DNA of 31,367 nt. Source: a virus. The notes below the pieces were generated by a model. That model made no database searches, had not been told where the DNA came from, and worked only from the letters and a program-made list of their open reading frames with translations. Both the position numbers and the translations under genes were made by a program. This document shows positions 2,658 to 15,997 of the stretch, in pieces; position 1 is the stretch's first letter, and the number at the start of each line of letters is the position of its first letter. Location of the stretch: IMG/VR virus record IMGVR_UViG_3300013104_000061, positions 1-31,367 of that record; one strand, written 5' to 3'.

Positions 2658-3182
2658 ATGGAAGCTAAGCAGGTCGCAGTCCCTCGTATCTCGGACGAAG
2701 CGATCATAAAGCACTACGGTGTCCGAGGCATGAAGTGGGGCGTTCACAGGGATCGAACGCCTCAGCCGGTGGTGACCATCACCCAGCCCGGCAAGAGGGT
2801 CAAGTCCAAGGGAGGCAAGAACCAGCCGCCTTCCGAGGATGCGATCGCCGTCTCGAACTTCCACCGTCAGGCTCTCAAGAGCACGACGGACTCGCTCTCC
2901 ACCAAGGAGCTCCAGGCGCTTGTCAACCGCATGAACCTGGAGAAGCAGTTCGCCGAGCTCGAGAAGTCGGGCATCCGTGACAGCCAGGGCAAGAAGTTCG
3001 TCAAGGAGTTCCTGAACACCGCCGACAACAAGAACTTCACCATGGACATGATCGACAAGGGGACGGATCTCATCCCCGGCAACAAGCTCGTCAAGACCGG
3101 CGTCAAGATCAGCGCCGTCATCGCCAAGGCCTACGTCAACAAGCTGGGCCCCAAGGACAACGGCGGCAAGAAGAAGAAGTAA
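2658..3182 (+). CDS. GMKWGV-motif protein 1, probable virion-associated
   Basis: 174 aa. Start ATG 2658 is set by a near-perfect AAAGGAGGTGAG (2646-2657); an in-frame GTG at 2586 would add 24 residues encoded by the 9-nt repeats but has a poor ribosome binding site. Residues 18-30 carry KHYGVRGMKWGVH, a short motif found at the N or C terminus of many Gram-positive phage proteins encoded near portal genes. The rest is charged and mostly helical, with SLSTKELQALVNRMN at about 80-95, a hydrophobic helix near 155-165, and a Lys-rich end (GGKKKK). Two more proteins with the same motif are encoded at 5217 and 5632. Function is not established; a packaged or head-internal protein is my inference from the motif and location. 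Confidence 0.6.
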   Translation: MEAKQVAVPRISDEAIIKHYGVRGMKWGVHRDRTPQPVVTITQPGKRVKSKGGKNQPPSEDAIAVSNFHRQALKSTTDSLSTKELQALVNRMNLEKQFAELEKSGIRDSQGKKFVKEFLNTADNKNFTMDMIDKGTDLIPGNKLVKTGVKISAVIAKAYVNKLGPKDNGGKKKK

Positions 3183-3193
3183 GGAGATCCATA

Positions 3194-3436
3194 ATGATGC
3201 TTGGACCTGAAGAGATCGAGAACCGTTTCGGTTTCCACAAGGGCACCGTCGAGGGCCCCGACGCCACCGCTCCGAAGCACGCCGGCCTTCGCAAGAAGTT
3301 CGTCGAGCTGGCCCAGGAGCTGGACGAGGTCGTCCCCGACAGTCGCGCCAAGAGCGTGATGTTCACCGAGCTCGAGACCGCAGCGATGTGGGCTCACAAG
3401 GCGATCGCCGAGAGGGCGCCGCTGATCCGCGAGTAA
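3194..3436 (+). CDS. acb2: Acb2/Tad1-like cyclic-nucleotide sponge, predicted anti-CBASS
   Basis: 80 aa. The sequence reads as a small Acb2-family helical protein: IENRFGFH near the N terminus (residues 8-15), then helices with LRKKFVELAQELDEVVPDSR, SVMFTELETAAMWAHKAIAER. The pattern NRF..H, a helix ending in P-x-S/G-R-x-K-S, then T-x-LE-x-A-x-x-WA-x-x-x-IA is how I recognise the family. Acb2 proteins bind cyclic di- and trinucleotide signals made by CBASS defence and so prevent effector activation. AAGGAGAT (3181-3188) precedes ATG 3194 and a second ATG at 3197. The gene lies between the first GMKWGV protein and the large terminase, in the middle of the head operon rather than an early region. 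The call is by eye and needs a profile search. Confidence 0.72.
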   Translation: MMLGPEEIENRFGFHKGTVEGPDATAPKHAGLRKKFVELAQELDEVVPDSRAKSVMFTELETAAMWAHKAIAERAPLIRE

Positions 3437-3450
3437 CGAAAGGAGGAGCG

Positions 3451-5196
3451 ATGGCTCTGTCGAATACCGCGGTGCCGTACTACTACGGCATCTTCCGGGA
3501 GAAGGTCAAGCGCGGAGAGATCCCCGTTAACCGAGAGATTTCCCTCGAGATGAACCGCATTGACGCGCTCATCGCAAATCCCAACGTCTACTACGATCCT
3601 GAGCCCGTGGAAGGCTTCATCGCCTACTGCGAGAACGAGCTCACCCTGACGGATGGGTCGGATCTGGTTCTGCTCGACACCTTCAAGGTTTGGGCGGAGC
3701 AGATCTTCTGCTGGTACTACTTCAAGTCGAAGACCGTCTACGTGCCTTCCGCCGACAACCGTGGCGGCAAGCACGTTCGTAGGCAGGTCAAGAAGCGGTT
3801 GATCCGCAAGCAGTACCTCATCGTCGCGCGAGGCGCAGCCAAGTCCATGTACGCCGCCTGCATCCAGGCGTTCTTCCTCAACGTGGATCCTCAGACGACA
3901 ACGCAGATCACAACGGCTCCCACAATGAAGCAGGCTGAAGAGGTGATGTCGCCCATCCGGACGGCCATCACCCGAGCCCGGGGTCCAGTGTTCAAGTTCC
4001 TCACGGAAGGTTCGCTGAACAACACAACTGGATCCCGGGCTCTTCGGGCCAAGCTCGCGTCCACGAAGAAGGGCATCGAGAACTTCCTCACGAACTCGAT
4101 CCTCGAGATTCGTCCCATGTCCATCAACAAGCTGCAGGGCGCCCGCCCTAAGATCTCGACAGTCGATGAATGGCTGTCTGGTGACCTCCGCGAGGATGTC
4201 ATCGGAGCTCTCGAACAGGGCGCGTCCAAGCTTCCCGACTACTTGATCGTCGCCATCTCTTCGGAGGGCACGGTCCGTAACGGCTCCGGCGACACCATCA
4301 AAATGGAACTCAGCAACATCCTCAACGGCGAGTACTCGGCGCCGCATGTCTCCATCTGGCACTACAAGCTGGACGACATCGAGGAAGTGGGCATGCCGGA
4401 GATGTGGCCGAAGGCCCAGCCCAACATCGACCTGACTGTCAGCTACGACGTCTATCACGAAGAGGTGGAGCGAGCCGAGAAGGCTCCTGCTACTCGGAAT
4501 GACATTCTCGCCAAGCGATTCGGGATCCCGATGGAAGGTCACACGTTCTTCTTCCACTACGACGAGACGCTTCCGCACACGCCACAAGAGTTCTGGAACA
4601 TGCCATGTGCTCTGGGCGCGGACCTCTCGCAGGGTGACGACTTCTGTGCGTTCACCTTCCTCTTCCCGCTGCGACGTGGGAAGTTCGGCGTCAAGACTCG
4701 GAGCTACATCACCGAGCTAACCCTCAAGAAGCTTCCGGGCGCAAGCCGTGTGAAGTACCAGGAGTTCCTCGACGAGGGAAGCCTGCACGTTCTCGAGGGA
4801 ACGATCTTGGACATGAACGAGGTCTACGACGATCTCGACACATACATTCAGTCCGAGGGCTATGACGTCCGAGCTTTCGGCTTCGACCCCTACAACGCTC
4901 GCGAGTTCGTGGAGCGCTGGACCACCGACAACGGCCCTCACGCCGTCGAGAAGGTCATCCAGGGTGCGAAGACTGAATCCGTTCCTCTCGGTGAGCTGAA
5001 GGATCTCGCGGCGGAGCGCATGCTCCTCTTCGACGAGCGCCTGATGCAGTACGCCATGGGTAACTGCATGGTTCTCGAAGACACCAACGGGAACCGCAAG
5101 CTGTACAAGCAGCGCCGAGACGAGAAGATCGACAACGTCGCAGCCATGATGGATGCGTTCATCGCTTGGAAGCTGCACAAAGAAGAGTTCGAGTGA
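3451..5196 (+). CDS. terL: Terminase large subunit
   Basis: 581 aa. ATP-driven DNA-packaging motor with a nuclease that cuts concatemers. ATPase domain: a Walker A-like ARGAAKS at about 126-132 (a degenerate P-loop typical of phage terminases), hydrophobic strand plus acid ISTVDE at 235-240 (Walker B), and a coupling-motif region ending near AISSEGT (268-274). Nuclease domain: Asp391 in GADLSQGDD, Asp479 in GFDPYN, and Asp561/Asp568 in IDNVAAMMDA are likely metal ligands of the RNase H-like fold. Length is normal for a Terminase_1-type protein. ATG 3451 follows GAAAGGAGGAG (3438-3448), which decides the start over an upstream in-frame codon. The stop is followed at once by a second GMKWGV gene. 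Confidence 0.92.
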   Translation: MALSNTAVPYYYGIFREKVKRGEIPVNREISLEMNRIDALIANPNVYYDPEPVEGFIAYCENELTLTDGSDLVLLDTFKVWAEQIFCWYYFKSKTVYVPSADNRGGKHVRRQVKKRLIRKQYLIVARGAAKSMYAACIQAFFLNVDPQTTTQITTAPTMKQAEEVMSPIRTAITRARGPVFKFLTEGSLNNTTGSRALRAKLASTKKGIENFLTNSILEIRPMSINKLQGARPKISTVDEWLSGDLREDVIGALEQGASKLPDYLIVAISSEGTVRNGSGDTIKMELSNILNGEYSAPHVSIWHYKLDDIEEVGMPEMWPKAQPNIDLTVSYDVYHEEVERAEKAPATRNDILAKRFGIPMEGHTFFFHYDETLPHTPQEFWNMPCALGADLSQGDDFCAFTFLFPLRRGKFGVKTRSYITELTLKKLPGASRVKYQEFLDEGSLHVLEGTILDMNEVYDDLDTYIQSEGYDVRAFGFDPYNAREFVERWTTDNGPHAVEKVIQGAKTESVPLGELKDLAAERMLLFDERLMQYAMGNCMVLEDTNGNRKLYKQRRDEKIDNVAAMMDAFIAWKLHKEEFE

Positions 5197-5216: not shown

Positions 5217-5591
5217 ATGAGCGACACAGATCTGACACCGGAGGAGTGGCTCGCTCACTTCGGCGTCAAGGGCATGAAGTGGGGTGTCCGCAAGAAGTAC
5301 AACGAGCGACAGACCAAGAAGATCGACAGCCTCAAGCGGGTTGCCGACGGCAAGGGCACGGCAAGGGACAAGCTCAAGGCCCTCAGTGGGTCCAGCGCGG
5401 CCGAGCTCGTCGCCAACAAGGGCCTCAAGAACACGGCCAAGAAGCACGCCGAGGTTCGACAGGCACACCTCGACCGCATCAACAAGGGCGAGGCCAAGAC
5501 GAGCGACCTGGTCCGGATGTACGGCAGCATGTCCACCGTCGATCTCATCAACGCCGGCCGCAACAAGAACCGCAGCTTCCGGCCCGCCTGA
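5217..5591 (+). CDS. GMKWGV-motif protein 2
   Basis: 124 aa, ATG 5217 after AGAAAGGA (5203-5210). Residues 1-27 are nearly identical to those of the next protein: MSDTDLTPEEWLAH, then FGVKGMKWGVRKK; only Phe/Tyr differs. The rest is unrelated: a basic helical body with AELVANKG, KKHAEVRQAHLDRIN and TVDLINAGRNKN. At DNA level the shared part differs at many third positions, so this is an old duplication or recombination, not a recent copy. The shared N terminus probably directs both proteins to the same place, most likely the capsid. The C-terminal region may be an effector or a packaged structural part; no catalytic motif is visible. Confidence 0.6.
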   Translation: MSDTDLTPEEWLAHFGVKGMKWGVRKKYNERQTKKIDSLKRVADGKGTARDKLKALSGSSAAELVANKGLKNTAKKHAEVRQAHLDRINKGEAKTSDLVRMYGSMSTVDLINAGRNKNRSFRPA

Positions 5592-5631: not shown

Positions 5632-6456
5632 ATGAGTGACACCGACCTGACGCCCGAGGAGTGGCTTGCTCACTACGGCGTCAAGGGAATGAAGTGGGGC
5701 GTCCGTAAGAAGGACGAGAAGTCGAACGATGCCAAGGCTGGCGTCGATCCGGCAACGGCGATGCTTGCCATCTACGGCGGTGTCGTTCTCTCGGCCTTCA
5801 TCGGCGCGAAGATCGCCCAGTACCACGACAGCGGCATCAAGAACGCCAAGAAGACCGACGTCGCGGACTGGAAGAAGGATCCCAACCTCACCAAGAAGAT
5901 GAACGTGACCCAGCTCCATGCCAAGGTCGTCAAGCCGATCAACCCCGGCTTCGGCGAGAAGGGCACGATGATGAACTGTCGTCGGTGCACCTTCGCTTAC
6001 GAGCTTCGTCGTCGTGGTTACGACGTCAAGGCCACGAAGAGCAAGTACGCCACGGGTCAGGACACCGACGGTCTCCGTAAGGCGACCAACAAGAAGCACG
6101 ACACGTTCGAGTCGATGTGGGGAGAGAAGGCAGTCAAGACGCCAATCCACCTCGATGCCGGACCGCACAAGACGGCGAAGTCCATCTTCGACCACATCAA
6201 CAAGGAACCCGACGGTTCTCGTGGCGAGCTGGCCGTTTCCTGGCTGTTCGGCGGCGGCCACAGTGTCGCCTACGAGAAGGTCAACGGAAAGGCCGTCGTC
6301 ATCGACGCTCAGTCCGGCAAGACCTTCAAGTCCGTCGACGAGTTCGTCAAGAACTCTGGGTTCGCCGATGCGATCACCAGTGCATCGACAACGCGTCTGG
6401 ACAACGTCGAGCTCAACAACGACTTCCTGAAGAGGTGGGTGGGACCCAATGCTTAG
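5632..6456 (+). CDS. Papain-fold toxin-like protein with GMKWGV N terminus
   Basis: 274 aa in three parts. Residues 1-27 are the shared targeting-like segment with YGVKGMKWGV. Residues about 41-64 form one hydrophobic helix (AMLAIYGGVVLSAFIGAKIA). Residues about 108-274 look like a papain-fold toxin domain (Tox-PL/papain fold toxin 1): NCRRCTFAYELRRRGYDV at 115-132 supplies the Cys nucleophile (Cys116 or Cys119), GGGHSVAYE gives His210, and VVIDAQSGKTF gives Asp225. In polymorphic toxin systems this domain is a C-terminal effector predicted to act as a peptidase or deamidase. Here it is on a phage protein just upstream of the portal, suggesting packaging and injection. All triad residues appear intact. 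ATG 5632 follows AAGAAAGG. The next gene overlaps its stop and may encode immunity. Activity and target are unknown. Confidence 0.68.
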   Translation: MSDTDLTPEEWLAHYGVKGMKWGVRKKDEKSNDAKAGVDPATAMLAIYGGVVLSAFIGAKIAQYHDSGIKNAKKTDVADWKKDPNLTKKMNVTQLHAKVVKPINPGFGEKGTMMNCRRCTFAYELRRRGYDVKATKSKYATGQDTDGLRKATNKKHDTFESMWGEKAVKTPIHLDAGPHKTAKSIFDHINKEPDGSRGELAVSWLFGGGHSVAYEKVNGKAVVIDAQSGKTFKSVDEFVKNSGFADAITSASTTRLDNVELNNDFLKRWVGPNA

Positions 6457-6694
6457 CCCAACAGAAGCGAAGGACCTGCTCGAGAAGTCGATTCCCGAGG
6501 TCACCGTCAAGGTGATGGTTCCGTTCCGTGGATCATTTCTGGTTCGCGGAGAGCTCGAGGACCCGAACGAGGCGGAGTTCACTCCGTTCTTCATCGTCAA
6601 CCCGAACACCAGCCAGATCGACGAGTTCTCGCCTGCCTACGACGGGGACATGCCGACGATCATCAAGGCATTTTCCCAGCCCAGTCTGGTCTAG
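6449..6694 (+). CDS. Small acidic protein, candidate immunity partner
   Basis: 81 aa. It starts at ATG 6449, 8 nt inside the end of the toxin-like gene, with AGAGGTGGGTGG upstream, so the two are translationally coupled. The sequence is compact and acidic with alternating strand-like segments: EVTVKVMVPF, GSFLVRGELEDP, FTPFFIVNPNTSQIDEF, and a final helix TIIKAF. It resembles small phage proteins (pattern DPFF-x-V-N-x-x-T-G) found next to head genes elsewhere. Immediate downstream position, small size and acidity are the usual signs of an immunity protein for a polymorphic toxin; that is inference. An alternative is a structural or chaperone protein unrelated to the toxin. Confidence 0.6.
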   Translation: MLSPTEAKDLLEKSIPEVTVKVMVPFRGSFLVRGELEDPNEAEFTPFFIVNPNTSQIDEFSPAYDGDMPTIIKAFSQPSLV

Positions 6695-6732: not shown

Positions 6733-8094
6733 GTGGGATTTGGTGAAAAACTGAAGCATGCATGGAATGCATTTTCGGTCACGGAGCCGGACCGTTACGC
6801 GACGGCATTCCCTGGCGGAGGCGACTTCGTCATCGGGAACAGTCGTCCGGATCGTTTTCGGATCACGACGACGAATGACCGCTCAATGGTCGGAGCGATC
6901 TACACCCGTTTGGCGACCGATTTCGCAGCCATCAGCATCAGACACGTTCGGCTCGACGAAAACGACCGTTTCACGGAAGAGATCTCGTCGGGACTGAACA
7001 ACTGCCTCAAGCTCGAAGCCAACCTCGATCAGGGTGCGCGAGCATTCAAGCAGGACATCGCGCTCTCGCTGTTCGAGCACGGTTATCTCGCCTTGGTTCC
7101 GGTGGACACCTCCGTGGACCCCGGCATCACCGCTGGATTCGATGTCCTCACGATGCGAGTCGGCCATATCGTCAAGTGGTACCCCCAGTACGTCCGGGTG
7201 AGTGTCTACAACGAGAAGACCGGCAAGCGTCAAGAGGTCACGGTGCACAAGACCAAGTGCGCTGTCATCGAGAACCCGTTCTACAACGTGATGAACGAGA
7301 CGAACTCAACGCTCCAGCGACTTATTCGGAAGCTCTCGCTTCTGGACTCGGTCGAAGAGGCTGCGGGTTCGGGCAAGCTCGACCTCATCATCCAGTTGCC
7401 GTACGTCGTCAAGTCCGAAGCACGCAAGGCTCAGGCTGAGCAGCGACGAACCGACATCGAAGTGCAGCTCAAGGGAAGCAAGTACGGTATCGCCTACACG
7501 GACGGTACCGAGAAGGTCACGCAGCTCAACCGCCCGGCCGAGAACAACCTGTTGGGGACGATCGAGTACCTCACCAAGGAGCTCTACGGCCAGCTGGGTC
7601 TCACCCCAGAGATCATGAACGGCACGGCGGACGAGAAGACGATGCTCAACTACTACACGCGGACGATCGAGCCTCTGCTCGAAGCCGTTGTGGAGGGAAT
7701 GAAGCGCGTATTTCTCACGAAGACGGCCCGCTCCCAGGGGCAGTCGATCGAGTACTTCCGCGACCCGTTCAAGCTGCTTCCCATCTCTTCGATCGCCGAC
7801 ATCGGCGACAAGCTGACTCGCAACGAGGTTCTCACCTCCAACGAGCTCCGTCAGGTCCTCGGCTTCAAGCCGAGCAAGGACCCGAAGGCAGACCAGCTGA
7901 TCAACAGCAACATGCCCCAAGCCGACACGGGTCTACCCCCCGCCAATGATGGCGTGGACCCGAACGCGGATCCAGCGGCACCGACAGACCCTGCGGTCCC
8001 AGGTAACGACGCCGAATCGATCATGAACTCGGCTCTGGATGAAGTGAACTCCTCGCTTGACGGGATCTTCCAGACTCTCGGGATCGAGGGTTAA
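6733..8094 (+). CDS. Portal protein (HK97-type)
   Basis: 453 aa. Forms the dodecameric ring at one capsid vertex through which DNA is packaged and ejected. Portal features include the N-terminal AIYTRLATDFAAISIRHVRL, the stem and wing region with HIVKWYPQYVRV, IAYTDGTEKVTQLNRP, EYLTKELYGQLGLTPEIMNG, and TIEPLLEAVVEGMKRVFL. The last 60 residues are Pro/Asp-rich and probably disordered. The start is GTG 6733 after AAAGGAAGGAGGTGAC (ending 6730). The stop overlaps the next ATG (TTAATG at 8091-8096), indicating coupling to the Lys-rich protein. Confidence is high on sequence pattern and position between terminase and capsid genes. Confidence 0.9.
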   Translation: MGFGEKLKHAWNAFSVTEPDRYATAFPGGGDFVIGNSRPDRFRITTTNDRSMVGAIYTRLATDFAAISIRHVRLDENDRFTEEISSGLNNCLKLEANLDQGARAFKQDIALSLFEHGYLALVPVDTSVDPGITAGFDVLTMRVGHIVKWYPQYVRVSVYNEKTGKRQEVTVHKTKCAVIENPFYNVMNETNSTLQRLIRKLSLLDSVEEAAGSGKLDLIIQLPYVVKSEARKAQAEQRRTDIEVQLKGSKYGIAYTDGTEKVTQLNRPAENNLLGTIEYLTKELYGQLGLTPEIMNGTADEKTMLNYYTRTIEPLLEAVVEGMKRVFLTKTARSQGQSIEYFRDPFKLLPISSIADIGDKLTRNEVLTSNELRQVLGFKPSKDPKADQLINSNMPQADTGLPPANDGVDPNADPAAPTDPAVPGNDAESIMNSALDEVNSSLDGIFQTLGIEG

Positions 8095-11389: not shown

Positions 11390-12292
11390 ATGACTCGAGT
11401 TCTTTGGGACCAGGTCGGTGAGCGCCGGATCGAGACCGGTGTCGACCGCGGTGTCCTCTACATCCCCAACAACGTCGGTGTCTACGACAACGGCTACCCC
11501 TGGAACGGTCTCACGGCCGTCACGGAGAAGCCGTCGGGCGCCGAGAGCAACAAGCAGTACGCCGACAACCAGGTGTACATCAACCTCATGTCGGCCGAGG
11601 ACTTCAGCGGCACCATCGAGGCCTTCACCTACCCCAACCAGTTCGCTGCGTGCGACGGCTCGGCCGTCTCGGCGGCGGGTGTCTACATCGGCCAGCAGGA
11701 CCGTCAGTCCTTCGGCCTCTCGTACCGCACCCTCGTCAAGACCGACACGAACGCGAACGCCGGCTACAAGGTCCACCTCGTGTACGGCGCCATGGCGTCG
11801 CCGTCCGAGAAGGGCTACAGCACGGTCAACGACAGCCCCGAGGGCGTCGGCCTGAGCTGGGACTTCTCGACCACCCCGGTCGCGATCAGCACCCAGGTCG
11901 GCGGCAAGACGCTCAAGCCGTCCGCCATCATCACGGTCGACTCGACCCAGGTCCCTGCGTCCAACCTGCAGGCCCTCGAGGACGCCCTGTACGGCACGGC
12001 CGGCACCCAGCCGCGTCTCCCCACCCCGGACGAGGTCATCGCGATGTTCGCCGGCGCCCTGACGGTGGTCACCCCGACCGTCCCGACGGCCACCACGGCG
12101 GGTCTCATCACGATCCCGACCGTCACGGGTGTCGAGTACCGTCGCGGCGACACCAACGTCAAGGTCACCGGCACGGTGCAGGTCCCGGGTGCCATCGGGC
12201 AGTCGCTGATCATCAAGGCGGTGCCGGCTTCCGGCGCCTACGTCTTCACCGCCGGCGTCGACGACGACTGGCTGTTCACCAAGACGACCTGA
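11390..12292 (+). CDS. Major tail tube protein, with C-terminal beta domain
   Basis: 300 aa. It probably polymerises to form the tail tube. The core (about 1-215) has ETGVDRGVLYIP, YPWNGLTAVTEKPSG, FSGTIEAFTYPNQF, FGLSYRTL, GYKVHLVYGA, SWDFSTTPV and LEDALYG. A separate beta domain follows (about 235-300: LITIPTVTGVEYRRG ... VDDDWLF), similar to the C terminus of the capsid protein at 8692. Two paralogues of the core lie at 12888 and 15272. Codon use is heavily C/G-ending, as in the capsid gene, which fits the most abundant tail protein being this copy. The ribosome binding site AAGAAGGGAAG lies before ATG 11390. Confidence 0.85.
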   Translation: MTRVLWDQVGERRIETGVDRGVLYIPNNVGVYDNGYPWNGLTAVTEKPSGAESNKQYADNQVYINLMSAEDFSGTIEAFTYPNQFAACDGSAVSAAGVYIGQQDRQSFGLSYRTLVKTDTNANAGYKVHLVYGAMASPSEKGYSTVNDSPEGVGLSWDFSTTPVAISTQVGGKTLKPSAIITVDSTQVPASNLQALEDALYGTAGTQPRLPTPDEVIAMFAGALTVVTPTVPTATTAGLITIPTVTGVEYRRGDTNVKVTGTVQVPGAIGQSLIIKAVPASGAYVFTAGVDDDWLFTKTT

Positions 12293-12887: not shown

Positions 12888-15251
12888 ATGTCAAGAGTGA
12901 CCTGGGCCGATCCCGGTTCCCGTTTCTACGAGACCGGTGTGGATCGCACCGTCCTCTACGTCAACAACGTCGGCATTGCTTGGAGCGGCGTCCAGTCCAT
13001 TTCCGAGAGTCCGACCGGTGGGGAAGCCAGGCCGTTCTACATGGACGGCATCAAGTACCTGAACATCGCCGGCAAGGAGGAGTTCGAGGCCACGATCGAG
13101 GCGCTTGGATCTCCCGCGGAGTTTGGCCCCTGCGACGGCCGACAGGCCATCAACAACGGCCTCTTTGCGCACCAGCAGCCTCGCAAGGCCTTCAGCCTCT
13201 CCTACCGCACGCTCATCGGCAACGACACGGTCGGTCAGAACCTCGGCTACAAGATCCACCTCGTCTACAACGCGCTGGCGGCTCCGTCCGATCGCTCATA
13301 TTCGTCGACCGGAGACTCCTCCGATCCGACGACCAAGAGCTGGGCTCTCACCACGCTGCCTCCATCCCTGACGGGCATGAAGCCGACGGCCCACTTCGTG
13401 ATCGACTCTCGGTCGACGCCGAAGATGTTGCTCGCGGCCATCGAGGATATTCTGTATGGCAGCGATGCCGCAGATCCTCGTATGCCACTGGTCTCCGAGC
13501 TGATCGCGATGTTCAAGAGCGAAGGTCCGCTCACGAGGACGAACCTCATGACCAACCCGTCATTCCGTTCGACAACGACGCCGACTGAGGTTCTGCGGAA
13601 CTTCATCAAGAACCCGTCGTATCGTGCTACGTCGAACTATGTCGAGCGTCTTCGCAACAAGTGCGTGAATCCAAATCCGGCGACAACGAGCGGATACAGC
13701 ACGGGTACGCCAACGGCCGTTCCCGCGCCATGGGATGCAAGTCGAGGCGCCATTCGAGGGACGGGCACCGGATCTTCGACGTTCTACCTCTTCAGTGCGA
13801 CGGCTGACGCACTCATCCCTTCGGGAACTCCCGTTACGGTCAGTGGGACGATCCAAGTTCCTGCGGGAAAGTACTACCGGGTCTACGTGCACGTTCGAAC
13901 CGGAAACTACTACTACTCCAGCGCCACGGCGCCGTATGTTCTCTCGGACGGAAACCCGATTCGAGTCTCCAAGACTGAGACCCTTACGAGCGACGCAGCT
14001 GATGTCGATCTCGCAATTCTGGTTTACGACACCAACACGGGCGGTGTTCTTTCCGCTGGCGTCAACTGCTACATGGGCGATGTCATGATTCAGAGATCGA
14101 GCATCTTGAACTCATATTTCGATGGCGACACACCGGCTTCCGGCGACTTCACGTACGCTTGGACCGGAACTGCCAAGGCATCGTCTTCGTATCAGCGAGG
14201 AGCTTACGTCCCAAACGTGCTTTCTTCTGGAAACGTCGCCATCATGCAGTCAACAGCGTGGGTGCGACCGGGACGTTCATATTCGGCACGCCTCGCAAGT
14301 CTTTACGATTCAACGGGTTCGGGTTATGGCGATCTTGGAACACTCATAAGCGGGGTGCAAATCCTCGAACGGGGCAAGACCTACACCGTTAGTGCTTGGT
14401 TTTATTCGCCACCGTCCAATCCGAACACGACGGCAGGTTTTCAGTTCACCGTCACCGGCGTCACAGGTCTCAACAAGAACGCCATCGTGGCACCGGGGGG
14501 AGGCGAACAGTTCCTTTCACTGACCGTCACGGTACCGACGGATGTCAATGTCACTGGTGCGTATCTTCGCATCCAGAACAACGACAAGCGCGGTTTGGCC
14601 GACATCTGGATCAGTGACTTGATGTTCGTTGAGGGTGAGACCGTCGTTCCATTCTTCGATGGAACTACGCCGGCGGCAGATGGATTGACATACTCCTGGT
14701 CGGGAACCGCGGATGCTTCGGCGCCAATTGCAACTGGACTCCAGATCAGCACATGGAGCGGCAGCAACGGCGTTCGAACTCAAGGCCCGGCCATCGGTTT
14801 GGGTTACTCCATGGACATTCGTAAGTCATATACCTCGTATGGTCCGATCGTTCCATATTCTGCGGTTGGAGACTACTACTCAGCACAGGTGACGCTTCGA
14901 GCTATTCCGGGAGAATCTCTTTCGGATGCCTCGGTCAAGGTTCAGTTGCACGATGGCACACAGTACGTGTCTACGGCGGCGTACGTACTTCTTCCGGCAG
15001 ATGGTTCGCCGGTTGTGGTCCAAACCAATGCGTCACTCCCGATCGCTAACACTGGAGTTCGTCTCTACGTCTATCCAACCAAGGGGAATCCAGTTCGAGT
15101 GACTGAGTCCATCATCGAGAAAGTTACGGGACCGGATCTCCCGGTTTCTGGTCCATTCTTCGATGGCTCGTCGGCAGACGTCGACAAGTACTTCTACTAC
15201 TGGGACGGGACGCCCGATGCTTCAACGTCCCACATCAACACCTGGAACTAA
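12888..15251 (+). CDS. Tail-tube paralogue with carbohydrate-binding-like array
   Basis: 787 aa. Residues 1-215 are homologous to the major tail protein at 11390: ETGVDRTVLYVNNVGIAW, EEFEATIEALGSPAEF, FSLSYRTL, GYKIHLVYN, IEDILYGSD. After a triple lead-in (NLMTNPSF, NFIKNPSY, NKCVNPNP at about 218-256), about 530 residues of beta-rich sequence follow. A repeat FFDGxxP...TYxWxGTxxAS ends each unit at about 409-433, 587-612 and 755-780, spacing domains of about 165-180 residues. Such units are seen in actinophage minor tail proteins and probably bind cell-wall sugars. The protein could place receptor-binding domains along or at the end of the tube. The array uses more A/T-ending codons than the N-terminal part, suggesting separate acquisition. 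ATG 12888 follows AAAGGAGGT (12875-12883). Confidence 0.78.
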   Translation: MSRVTWADPGSRFYETGVDRTVLYVNNVGIAWSGVQSISESPTGGEARPFYMDGIKYLNIAGKEEFEATIEALGSPAEFGPCDGRQAINNGLFAHQQPRKAFSLSYRTLIGNDTVGQNLGYKIHLVYNALAAPSDRSYSSTGDSSDPTTKSWALTTLPPSLTGMKPTAHFVIDSRSTPKMLLAAIEDILYGSDAADPRMPLVSELIAMFKSEGPLTRTNLMTNPSFRSTTTPTEVLRNFIKNPSYRATSNYVERLRNKCVNPNPATTSGYSTGTPTAVPAPWDASRGAIRGTGTGSSTFYLFSATADALIPSGTPVTVSGTIQVPAGKYYRVYVHVRTGNYYYSSATAPYVLSDGNPIRVSKTETLTSDAADVDLAILVYDTNTGGVLSAGVNCYMGDVMIQRSSILNSYFDGDTPASGDFTYAWTGTAKASSSYQRGAYVPNVLSSGNVAIMQSTAWVRPGRSYSARLASLYDSTGSGYGDLGTLISGVQILERGKTYTVSAWFYSPPSNPNTTAGFQFTVTGVTGLNKNAIVAPGGGEQFLSLTVTVPTDVNVTGAYLRIQNNDKRGLADIWISDLMFVEGETVVPFFDGTTPAADGLTYSWSGTADASAPIATGLQISTWSGSNGVRTQGPAIGLGYSMDIRKSYTSYGPIVPYSAVGDYYSAQVTLRAIPGESLSDASVKVQLHDGTQYVSTAAYVLLPADGSPVVVQTNASLPIANTGVRLYVYPTKGNPVRVTESIIEKVTGPDLPVSGPFFDGSSADVDKYFYYWDGTPDASTSHINTWN

Positions 15252-15271: not shown

Positions 15272-15997
15272 ATGACCAGACTTATTTGGGCCGACAGGTC
15301 CTACGAGGCTGGAGTCGATCGGGGCGTTTACTACACCCCCGGGGGCACCGGCGTGGCCTGGAACGGCTTGACGGACGTGAATGAGTCTCCTTCTGAGGTA
15401 GACCAGCTCTCAAGCCATATCGATGGTGTCCGCGTCTACCGACGCCCTCGCGGCGAAGCATTCGGCGGATCCATCGAAGCCTTCACGGCTCCCGACGAGC
15501 TGTTCGAGGACATATTCTCGCAGCGTCGTCGCAGAAACTTCGGTATGAGCTACCGTGTAATGACGGACGACTCATACCAGATCCATCTCGTCTACAACAT
15601 TCTTCTGTCCGTCCCGAACGTGACCTACACCCAAGAGAAGGAAGAGGCCGATCCATTTTCATGGGACTTCACGACAAGGCCTCTTCCCATTCCTGGGATG
15701 AAGAACTCGGCGCATCTGGTGATCGATGCCCAGACGGCGTGGCCTGGTGCTCTATCGGCCATCGAAGCTGTCATCTATGGGGACGATTCTATGGATGCAT
15801 CGCTCCCGAGCCCCATGCAGGTTGCCGACATTTTCGAGATCAACTCGATCTTGCGAATCACCGATAACGGCGACGGGACGTGGACTGCGACTGGTCCGGA
15901 CGAGGCCATCCAGATGCTCGACTCGACGACCTTCCAGATCAACTGGCCCTCAGCCGAGTACATCGACACCGACACATACACGATTCGTTCTTGGTAA
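15272..15997 (+). CDS. Third tail-tube-like paralogue
   Basis: 241 aa. The core matches the proteins at 11390 and 12888: LIWADRSYEAGVDRGVYYTP, GVAWNGLTDVNESPS, FGGSIEAFTAPDELF, FGMSYRVM, YQIHLVYNILLSVP, FSWDFTTRPLPIPGMK, and IEAVIYGDD. The C-terminal 45 residues (LRITDNGDGTWTATGPDEAI) form a short beta segment different from the other two. Three tube-like proteins in one phage suggest that one forms the shaft and others form a special ring or tip. It starts at ATG 15272 after AAGGAAGGAG (15254-15263). Alternatively it is a minor tail protein that replaced the tube function in part. Confidence 0.75.
   Translation: MTRLIWADRSYEAGVDRGVYYTPGGTGVAWNGLTDVNESPSEVDQLSSHIDGVRVYRRPRGEAFGGSIEAFTAPDELFEDIFSQRRRRNFGMSYRVMTDDSYQIHLVYNILLSVPNVTYTQEKEEADPFSWDFTTRPLPIPGMKNSAHLVIDAQTAWPGALSAIEAVIYGDDSMDASLPSPMQVADIFEINSILRITDNGDGTWTATGPDEAIQMLDSTTFQINWPSAEYIDTDTYTIRSW

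What the first reader, a model, noticed from the sequence alone, without database searches (positions are those of the whole stretch)
5632..6694. Papain-fold toxin domain on a probable virion protein, with a coupled candidate immunity gene
The 274-aa protein joins a phage-type N-terminal motif, one membrane helix and a domain with all parts of a papain-like triad (Cys116/119, His210, Asp225), arranged as in bacterial polymorphic toxins. The next gene overlaps its stop by 8 nt, is small and acidic, and sits where immunity genes sit. It is unlike MuF toxins because the MuF domain is missing and a short GMKWGV segment is in its place. This suggests an effector packaged in the head and injected with DNA, or used against rival phages or cells.
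Basis: partly seen in the sequence, partly recalled or inferred. Interest (0 to 1): 0.88.

Follow-up and report, generated by a model that had tools for sequence, protein, structure and literature searches.

The report
Phage head-gene toxin with immunity partner
A bacterial virus carries, among its head-building genes, a papain-like toxin enzyme with a short recurring 'HYGVKGMKWGV' tag, next to a small gene that almost always accompanies that enzyme and probably keeps it silent until the virus delivers it; the tag occurs on many other unrelated virus proteins and may mark cargo for packaging.

Summary
The 274-aa protein (5632-6456) has a DUF7211 tag (PF23847, 6.6e-13), a hydrophobic helix and a C-terminal Tox-PL1/Gln_amidase domain (PF15644, 2.7e-12). 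In 101 non-redundant relatives Asn115, Cys116, His210 and Gln227 never vary; Asp225 is D/E in 99. Cys119 varies and is not catalytic. AlphaFold gives a confident papain-like fold; the nearest solved structures are AvrPphB, YopQ and the glutamine deamidase OspI.

The 81-aa gene (6449-6694) is a genuine partner. A small ORF directly follows 93/101 Tox-PL1 genes. Around 283 tag-bearing genes without the toxin domain its family never appears. Starting from the small gene, 26 of 27 testable loci have the toxin upstream. It is PepSY/Imm35-like.

The tag occurs on 329 ORFs in 120 viral contigs found by the tag's DNA alone, median 24 nt from TerL/portal/capsid genes, fused to GNAT, RNA-ligase, Tox-PL1 and unknown domains. 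A doubly tagged protein of Lactococcus phage 1706 is deposited as a structural protein. Relatives have no integrase; one is recorded as lytic.

Tox-PL1 on phage MuF proteins with immunity genes is known; DUF7211 as the carrier is not in the library searched. Head packaging and injection are inferred. New variant of a known kind.

The parts
5632..6456 (+). DUF7211 - hydrophobic helix - Tox-PL1 (Gln_amidase) protein, 274 aa
   Evidence: Pfam PF23847 6.6e-13 and PF15644 2.7e-12; AlphaFold pLDDT mostly above 80, up to 98, from residue 81 to the end
5653..5718 (+). DUF7211 tag (AHYGVKGMKWGVRKK region, residues 8-29)
   Evidence: PF23847; the 27-residue N-terminus is 26/27 identical to that of the preceding gene with 9 synonymous and 1 non-synonymous differences
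5752..5808 (+). hydrophobic, possibly membrane-spanning helix (residues 41-59)
   Evidence: Kyte-Doolittle 19-mean 1.83; 55 of 67 tagged toxins have a segment of at least 1.2 between tag and toxin domain; AlphaFold helix 40-73, low confidence
5974..6321 (+). Tox-PL1 / Gln_amidase domain; C116 codon 5977-5979, H210 codon 6259-6261, D225 codon 6304-6306
   Evidence: PF15644 over cut-off; NC-H-DxQ signature invariant or nearly so in 101 homologues; Foldseek AvrPphB and YopQ probability 1.0, OspI 0.90-0.92
6449..6694 (+). candidate immunity (inhibitor) gene, 81 aa, acidic, PepSY/Imm35-like alpha-beta fold
   Evidence: family directly follows Tox-PL1 genes and is absent next to tagged non-toxin genes; AlphaFold pLDDT 87.9; 14/74 family members hit PepSY, 2/74 Imm35
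5217..5591 (+). neighbouring DUF7211 protein of unknown function with nearly the same N-terminal tag
   Evidence: PF23847 1.1e-11, phrog_17496 2.5e-24
2658..3182 (+). third DUF7211 protein; shows weak similarity to the family of phage 1706 gp07
   Evidence: PF23847 1.4e-9; phrog_7021 1.1e-19; phrog_14126 1.2e-8, the PHROG that the 1706 gp07 protein itself matches
3451..5196 (+). terminase large subunit (context)
   Evidence: phrog_9 2.4e-110, PF20441 7.5e-30
6733..8094 (+). portal protein (context)
   Evidence: phrog_12 5.6e-43, PF04860 3.8e-16

Best explanation
The gene pair is a toxin-immunity cassette of a probably virulent siphophage of actinobacteria. The toxin is a Tox-PL1 papain-fold enzyme, a protein-glutamine deamidase or protease, carried on a DUF7211 tag. 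Proposed working: late in infection the tagged toxin is made with the other head proteins; the co-translated 81-aa protein binds and blocks its active site so the producing cell survives to assemble virions; the DUF7211 tag places the toxin, with several other tagged proteins, in the head; on the next infection it leaves the head with the DNA, without its inhibitor, and the enzyme modifies host proteins or host defences early. Shown: domain identity, intact active site, fold, head-module location, specific pairing with the small gene, modular re-use of the tag. Inferred: incorporation in the head, ejection, inhibition by the 81-aa protein, target and chemistry.
For: Domain and fold: PF15644, active-site residues in 101 homologues, AlphaFold, Foldseek to papain-like AvrPphB and OspI and to viral proteins named 'papain fold toxin 1'. 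Pairing: small ORF directly downstream of 93/101 Tox-PL1 ORFs; 12/12 toxin-bearing against 42/283 toxin-less tagged ORFs have a small ORF next, and the immunity family is next to 8/12 against 0/283; starting from the small gene, 26/28 loci have the toxin upstream, one exception being a truncated contig; toxin and partner distances correlate, Mantel r=0.84, 0/2000 permutations. Tag: 120 loci found by tag DNA alone hold 329 tagged ORFs, 111/120 loci contain a TerL, portal or capsid homologue, 315/315 testable ORFs lie on the same strand, median distance 24 nt; cargo includes GNAT, 2'-5' RNA ligase/LigT, Tox-PL1, a portal fusion and many unknowns; the tag is conserved between adjacent unrelated proteins (dS 1.04, dN 0.016). 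Virion: Lactococcus phage 1706 gp07, deposited as 'structural protein', carries two DUF7211 copies; a ReqiPepy6 DUF7211 protein is deposited as 'structural protein' by similarity to it. Lifestyle: no tyrosine integrase in ten relatives and no serine recombinase in the nine of them searched for it, with positive controls; Secretariat is listed as lytic in PMC9671378.
Against: No DUF7211-Tox-PL1 protein is known to have been seen in a virion. The 1706 label comes from the record; the experiment behind it could not be read here. DUF7211 is only about 25 residues and modelled with low confidence, so no docking mechanism is visible. Most tagged proteins have no recognised enzymatic domain and may simply be structural. 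The hydrophobic helix could instead mean membrane insertion. The 81-aa protein itself matches no Pfam family.
Confidence: 0.6

Rival explanations
1. The papain-fold domain is a head-assembly or processing peptidase that cuts tagged head proteins (for example near DUF7211), and the PepSY-like small protein is its timing inhibitor. Zhang et al. 2012 suggested a processing role for Tox-PL1 in MuF proteins.
For: Tox-PL1 releasing-peptidase role proposed in PMC3482391; PepSY similarity of the partner family, PepSY being a peptidase propeptide domain; proteins with several DUF7211 copies and a C-terminal Tox-PL1 domain exist.
Against: These phages already encode an S78 protease fused to the capsid protein. 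Tox-PL1 is an accessory: only 12 of 329 tagged ORFs, in 11 of 120 loci. Its partner is diverse and co-varies with it like immunity proteins.
Confidence: 0.15
2. The pair acts only inside the infected cell as a toxin-antitoxin or superinfection-exclusion module against other phages; it is not packaged.
For: Toxin-partner pairing and co-evolution; a membrane-helix-like segment would suit an envelope-located exclusion factor.
Against: Location inside the head module and sharing of the tag with a protein deposited as structural in phage 1706; a late gene of a lytic phage has little time to exclude superinfection.
Confidence: 0.15
3. The protein is a structural head protein and the Tox-PL1 fold is a catalytically inactive remnant.
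For: DUF7211 proteins are mostly of unknown, possibly structural function.
Against: Active-site N, C, H and Q residues invariant in 101 sequences, purifying selection, and a dedicated partner gene.
Confidence: 0.05

Closest known systems
MuF polymorphic toxins, including MuF-Tox-PL1 (Zhang et al. 2012, PMC3482391; Jamet et al. 2017, PMC5576092)
   Same: Variable C-terminal toxin on a phage head-associated N-terminal segment, in the terminase-portal-capsid module, followed by a small immunity ORF (89.4% of muf toxin genes; 93/101 here).
   Different: No MuF domain; the carrier is a ~25-residue DUF7211 tag, used by several different proteins per phage. Relatives are predicted lytic, whereas Jamet et al. 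describe MuF toxins as exclusive to temperate phages (MuF-VIP2 fusions in lytic Microbacterium phages are reported in PMC7302621).
Gln_amidase / Tox-PL1 (PF15644), including the deamidase OspI
   Same: NC-H-DxQ signature, papain-like fold, C-terminal position.
   Different: Phage clade with additional invariant RxD at 255-257; substrate unknown; low identity to OspI (16% in Foldseek alignments).
Imm35 / YrhB and PepSY
   Same: Small alpha+beta protein next to Tox-PL1; Imm35 is the published partner of Tox-PL1; co-linear weak alignment with YrhB.
   Different: The 81-aa protein matches neither profile; only 2/74 relatives match Imm35 (best 0.0066) and 14/74 PepSY (best 1.5e-7).
Phage T4 internal head proteins and Alt with N-terminal capsid-targeting sequence (general knowledge; T4 ejected head proteins in PMC9503650)
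   Same: Idea of several unrelated effectors sharing a short N-terminal sorting segment for head packaging and ejection.
   Different: Unrelated sequence; processing of DUF7211 by the prohead protease untested.

Membership tests
Tox-PL1 / Gln_amidase (PF15644) | Profile match above curated cut-off | tested here: met
   48.2 bits against 24.1
Tox-PL1 / Gln_amidase (PF15644) | NC-H-DxQ catalytic signature | tested here: met
   N115 C116 H210 D225 Q227; N, C, H and Q invariant in 101 homologues; signature defined in PMC3482391
Tox-PL1 / Gln_amidase (PF15644) | Papain-like fold | tested here: met
   AlphaFold model; Foldseek AvrPphB and YopQ probability 1.0, OspI 0.90-0.92, although E-values are 3e-3 to 2e-2
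Tox-PL1 / Gln_amidase (PF15644) | Deamidase or protease activity and toxicity | not testable with these tools
   needs experiment
MuF polymorphic toxin | MuF domain N-terminal to the toxin | tested here: not met
   Pfam finds only DUF7211 and Gln_amidase, and the toxin domain begins near residue 95; a genome-wide PF04233 search was uninformative because annotated MuF-like controls were also missed
MuF polymorphic toxin | Carried by temperate phages | tested here: not met
   no integrase or serine recombinase in relatives; Secretariat listed as lytic; the window itself is a fragment
Polymorphic toxin system (general) | Small immunity gene directly downstream that tracks the toxin domain | tested here: met
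Polymorphic toxin system (general) | One trafficking segment shared by different C-terminal domains | tested here: met
   DUF7211 with Tox-PL1, GNAT, RNA ligase/LigT and many unknown C-termini; trafficking itself not shown
DUF7211 (PF23847) | Profile match above curated cut-off | tested here: met
   6.6e-13, 48.2 bits against 27
Imm35 (PF15567) | Profile match | tested here: inconclusive
   the 81-aa protein has no match and eight related phage genomes have none at E<=10; 2/74 family members at E<=0.0066
PepSY (PF03413) | Profile match or fold | tested here: inconclusive
   14/74 relatives match, best 1.5e-7, not the window protein; weak Foldseek hits to PepSY-like proteins, FoxB and a DUF2874 protein
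Virion structural or ejected protein | Present in purified virions | not testable with these tools
   only indirect: phage 1706 gp07 deposited as structural protein, with two DUF7211 copies

The most novel reading that the evidence does not exclude
DUF7211 (HYGxKGMKWGVR) is a short head-packaging tag, a phage analogue of a secretion signal, by which many, largely virulent, phages load several unrelated effectors into the capsid and deliver them at infection. The Tox-PL1/immunity pair is one class of a large undescribed arsenal of such cargo, outside the MuF system.
Probability: 0.45. Interest if true: 0.82.

Novelty: new variant of a known kind. Interest (0 to 1): 0.62.

Why it matters
If the tag is a packaging signal, a 25-residue motif lets one find in any phage genome the proteins it delivers at infection, most of which have no known function, and gives a handle for loading chosen reporter proteins into capsids. 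A toxin with a dedicated inhibitor in lytic phages also challenges the view that such cassettes serve lysogeny, and points to 'safe until delivered' as the purpose of the immunity gene.

Tried and rejected
Cys119 as catalytic residue: rejected, variable in 101 homologues. Imm35 membership of the 81-aa protein: not established. ADP-ribosyltransferase as the cargo of the phrog_7502 tagged proteins (Secretariat gp17, Mossy gp16): suspected by eye; no Pfam match, no solved-structure match, no ART-PolyVal match, so not claimed. MuF absence genome-wide by PF04233: uninformative, positive controls failed. Sequence search of solved structures with the toxin or immunity profile gave nothing significant. 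Literature: no relevant paper in the held library contains GMKWGV or DUF7211; subscription papers and preprints were not searchable. The 2008 paper on phage 1706 could not be read.

Full report
What is there. The window is a 31,367-base virus record, probably a fragment, with a siphophage gene order: HNH nuclease, CHAP lysin, connector-like protein, DUF7211 protein, Acb2/Tad1 hairpin protein, terminase large subunit, DUF7211 protein, the 274-aa protein, the 81-aa protein, portal, protease-capsid fusion, tail genes. The nearest annotated relatives are phages of Gordonia, Arthrobacter, Streptomyces, Rhodococcus and similar hosts. A close relative in IMG/VR (58,478 bases) carries the same pair at 88% and 79% amino-acid identity with dN/dS of about 0.3.

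The toxin domain. Pfam assigns residues 115-230 to Gln_amidase, 'Papain fold toxin 1'. This corresponds to the Tox-PL1 family, whose published signature is NC-H-DxQ (PMC3482391). Here it reads N115-C116, H210, D225-A-Q227. The relatives were gathered by similarity to the query, so degenerate copies are under-represented; one incomplete copy with N-I instead of N-C was seen. AlphaFold with 26 homologues gives mean pLDDT 77.7, with most of the domain above 80 and much of it above 90. Foldseek finds AvrPphB and YopQ at probability 1.0 and the deamidase OspI at 0.90-0.92 among solved structures, with modest E-values (3e-3 to 2e-2), and viral proteins named papain fold toxin, MuF-like fusion or VIP2-like toxin at E down to 1e-18. 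Whether the chemistry is deamidation or proteolysis cannot be told from sequence.

The partner gene. Among 101 non-redundant Tox-PL1 ORFs with at least 400 nt downstream, 93 have a 55-140 aa ORF starting between -40 and +60. An iterated profile from twelve such ORFs, including the window's, recognises the downstream ORF in 78 of 101 by strict position; several others overlap the toxin further upstream and were missed only by the position filter. The control comes from 120 loci fetched by the tag's DNA alone: of 283 tagged ORFs without the toxin domain, 42 have a small ORF next and none has an immunity-family ORF next; of 12 tagged toxins, 12 have a small ORF and 8 an immunity-family ORF; all 9 immunity-family hits lie in loci with a toxin. 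Conversely, 28 loci fetched with the small family alone have the toxin directly upstream in 26; one exception starts at a contig end and the other is an ORF in which the small domain is fused in front of a tagged, truncated toxin. Toxin and partner distance matrices correlate at r=0.84, not reached in 2000 permutations. The partner is predicted with pLDDT 87.9 as helix, strands, helix. It resembles PepSY weakly in fold; 14 of 74 family members match PepSY and 2 of 74 match Imm35, the published partner of Tox-PL1. It is therefore best called a PepSY/Imm35-like candidate immunity protein. Inhibition has not been shown.

The tag. DUF7211 is found on three window proteins. The toxin and the gene before it share 26 of 27 N-terminal residues with nine synonymous and one non-synonymous difference and are unrelated after it, which is what selection on a modular segment looks like. 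The exact-DNA scan gave 120 viral contigs with 329 tagged ORFs, typically starting within the first 20 residues; 111 of 120 loci include a terminase, portal or capsid homologue, all 315 testable ORFs are on the same strand, and the median distance to those genes is 24 nt. Recognisable C-terminal or fused domains are Tox-PL1, GNAT acetyltransferase, 2'-5' RNA ligase/LigT and a portal; most have none. Gordonia phages Secretariat and Mossy encode DUF7211-GNAT-DUF7211-Tox-PL1 in one protein, deposited as 'acetyltransferase'. Eleven DUF7211-bearing phage records related to the window carry three to nine copies each, phage ReqiPepy6 eight and phage 1706 two; 14 bacterial and archaeal control genomes carry none. 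Lactococcus phage 1706 gp07, deposited as structural protein, has two copies, and a tagged ReqiPepy6 protein is deposited as structural by similarity to it. This is the only virion evidence available, and its experimental basis could not be read.

Lifestyle. Ten related genomes have no tyrosine integrase, and the nine of them that were searched have no serine recombinase; a MuF-type phage (Nergal) does have a tyrosine integrase, as a positive control. Secretariat is listed as lytic (PMC9671378). In bacterial genome contigs only 1 of 40 Tox-PL1 loci is of the tagged type, and that contig also carries portal and capsid genes. This differs from MuF toxins, described as exclusive to temperate phages (PMC5576092), although MuF-VIP2 fusions in lytic Microbacterium phages are known (PMC7302621).

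Most likely working. A late-made, tagged enzyme is restrained by its small partner in the producing cell, placed in the head through DUF7211, and released with the DNA at the next infection, where it acts without inhibitor. A phage precedent for a small inhibitor occluding the active site of a virion-linked toxin exists in the MuF Apk2-IapK pair (PMC12226406). The packaging and delivery steps are inferred. An assembly-protease role and an intracellular exclusion role remain possible but fit less well.

Novelty. Tox-PL1 toxins, their fusion to phage head proteins and their pairing with a small immunity gene are known. The carrier tag, its use on many different proteins of the same phage, and its occurrence in probably lytic phages were not found described in the library available. 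It is therefore a new variant of a known kind, with a more novel reading, a general capsid-cargo tag, that is not excluded.

Noticed in passing
window 3194-3436 (+): An 80-aa protein matching the Acb2/Tad1 hairpin domain (anti-CBASS family; PF24729 1.7e-13, phrog_1454 5.6e-24) sits inside the head module between a DUF7211 protein and TerL.
   Followed up: no
L002:3748-5301 and L003:3763-5307 (Gordonia phages Secretariat gp15, Mossy gp17): Deposited as 'acetyltransferase', but each is DUF7211-GNAT-DUF7211-Tox-PL1; Sporto gp8 ('amidase') and Schwartz33 gp18 (hypothetical) are tagged Tox-PL1 proteins.
   Followed up: partly
L004:1000-2700 and L292:2682-4277: A 2'-5' RNA ligase/LigT domain is fused in front of a DUF7211 protein in Gordonia phage Schwartz33 gp16 and Rhodococcus phage ReqiPepy6 gp013; possible tRNA-repair cargo.
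   Followed up: no
L120:1890-3185 and L314:2311-3168: The immunity-like domain is fused in front of a second DUF7211-Tox-PL1 unit, as if tandem toxin-immunity cassettes had fused.
   Followed up: partly
L036:1416-3878, L037:634-3903, L131:1478-4492, L140:479-4510: Long proteins with one to four DUF7211 motifs and a C-terminal Tox-PL1 domain, suggesting polyproteins of tagged modules.
   Followed up: no
L009:3301-5637, L007:1545-2674: Arthrobacter phage Chubster MuF-like protein and mycobacteriophage Fameo 'VIP2-like toxin' carry Tox-PL1 domains (PF15644) each followed by a small gene; the VIP2 label looks wrong for Fameo gp3.
   Followed up: partly
window 11390-12292, 12888-15251, 15272-15997 (+): Three neighbouring tail-region genes share a similar N-terminus (about 'MTRVLWDQVGERRIETGVDRGVLYIP'), apparently tail-protein paralogues, one with a large insertion.
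   Followed up: no
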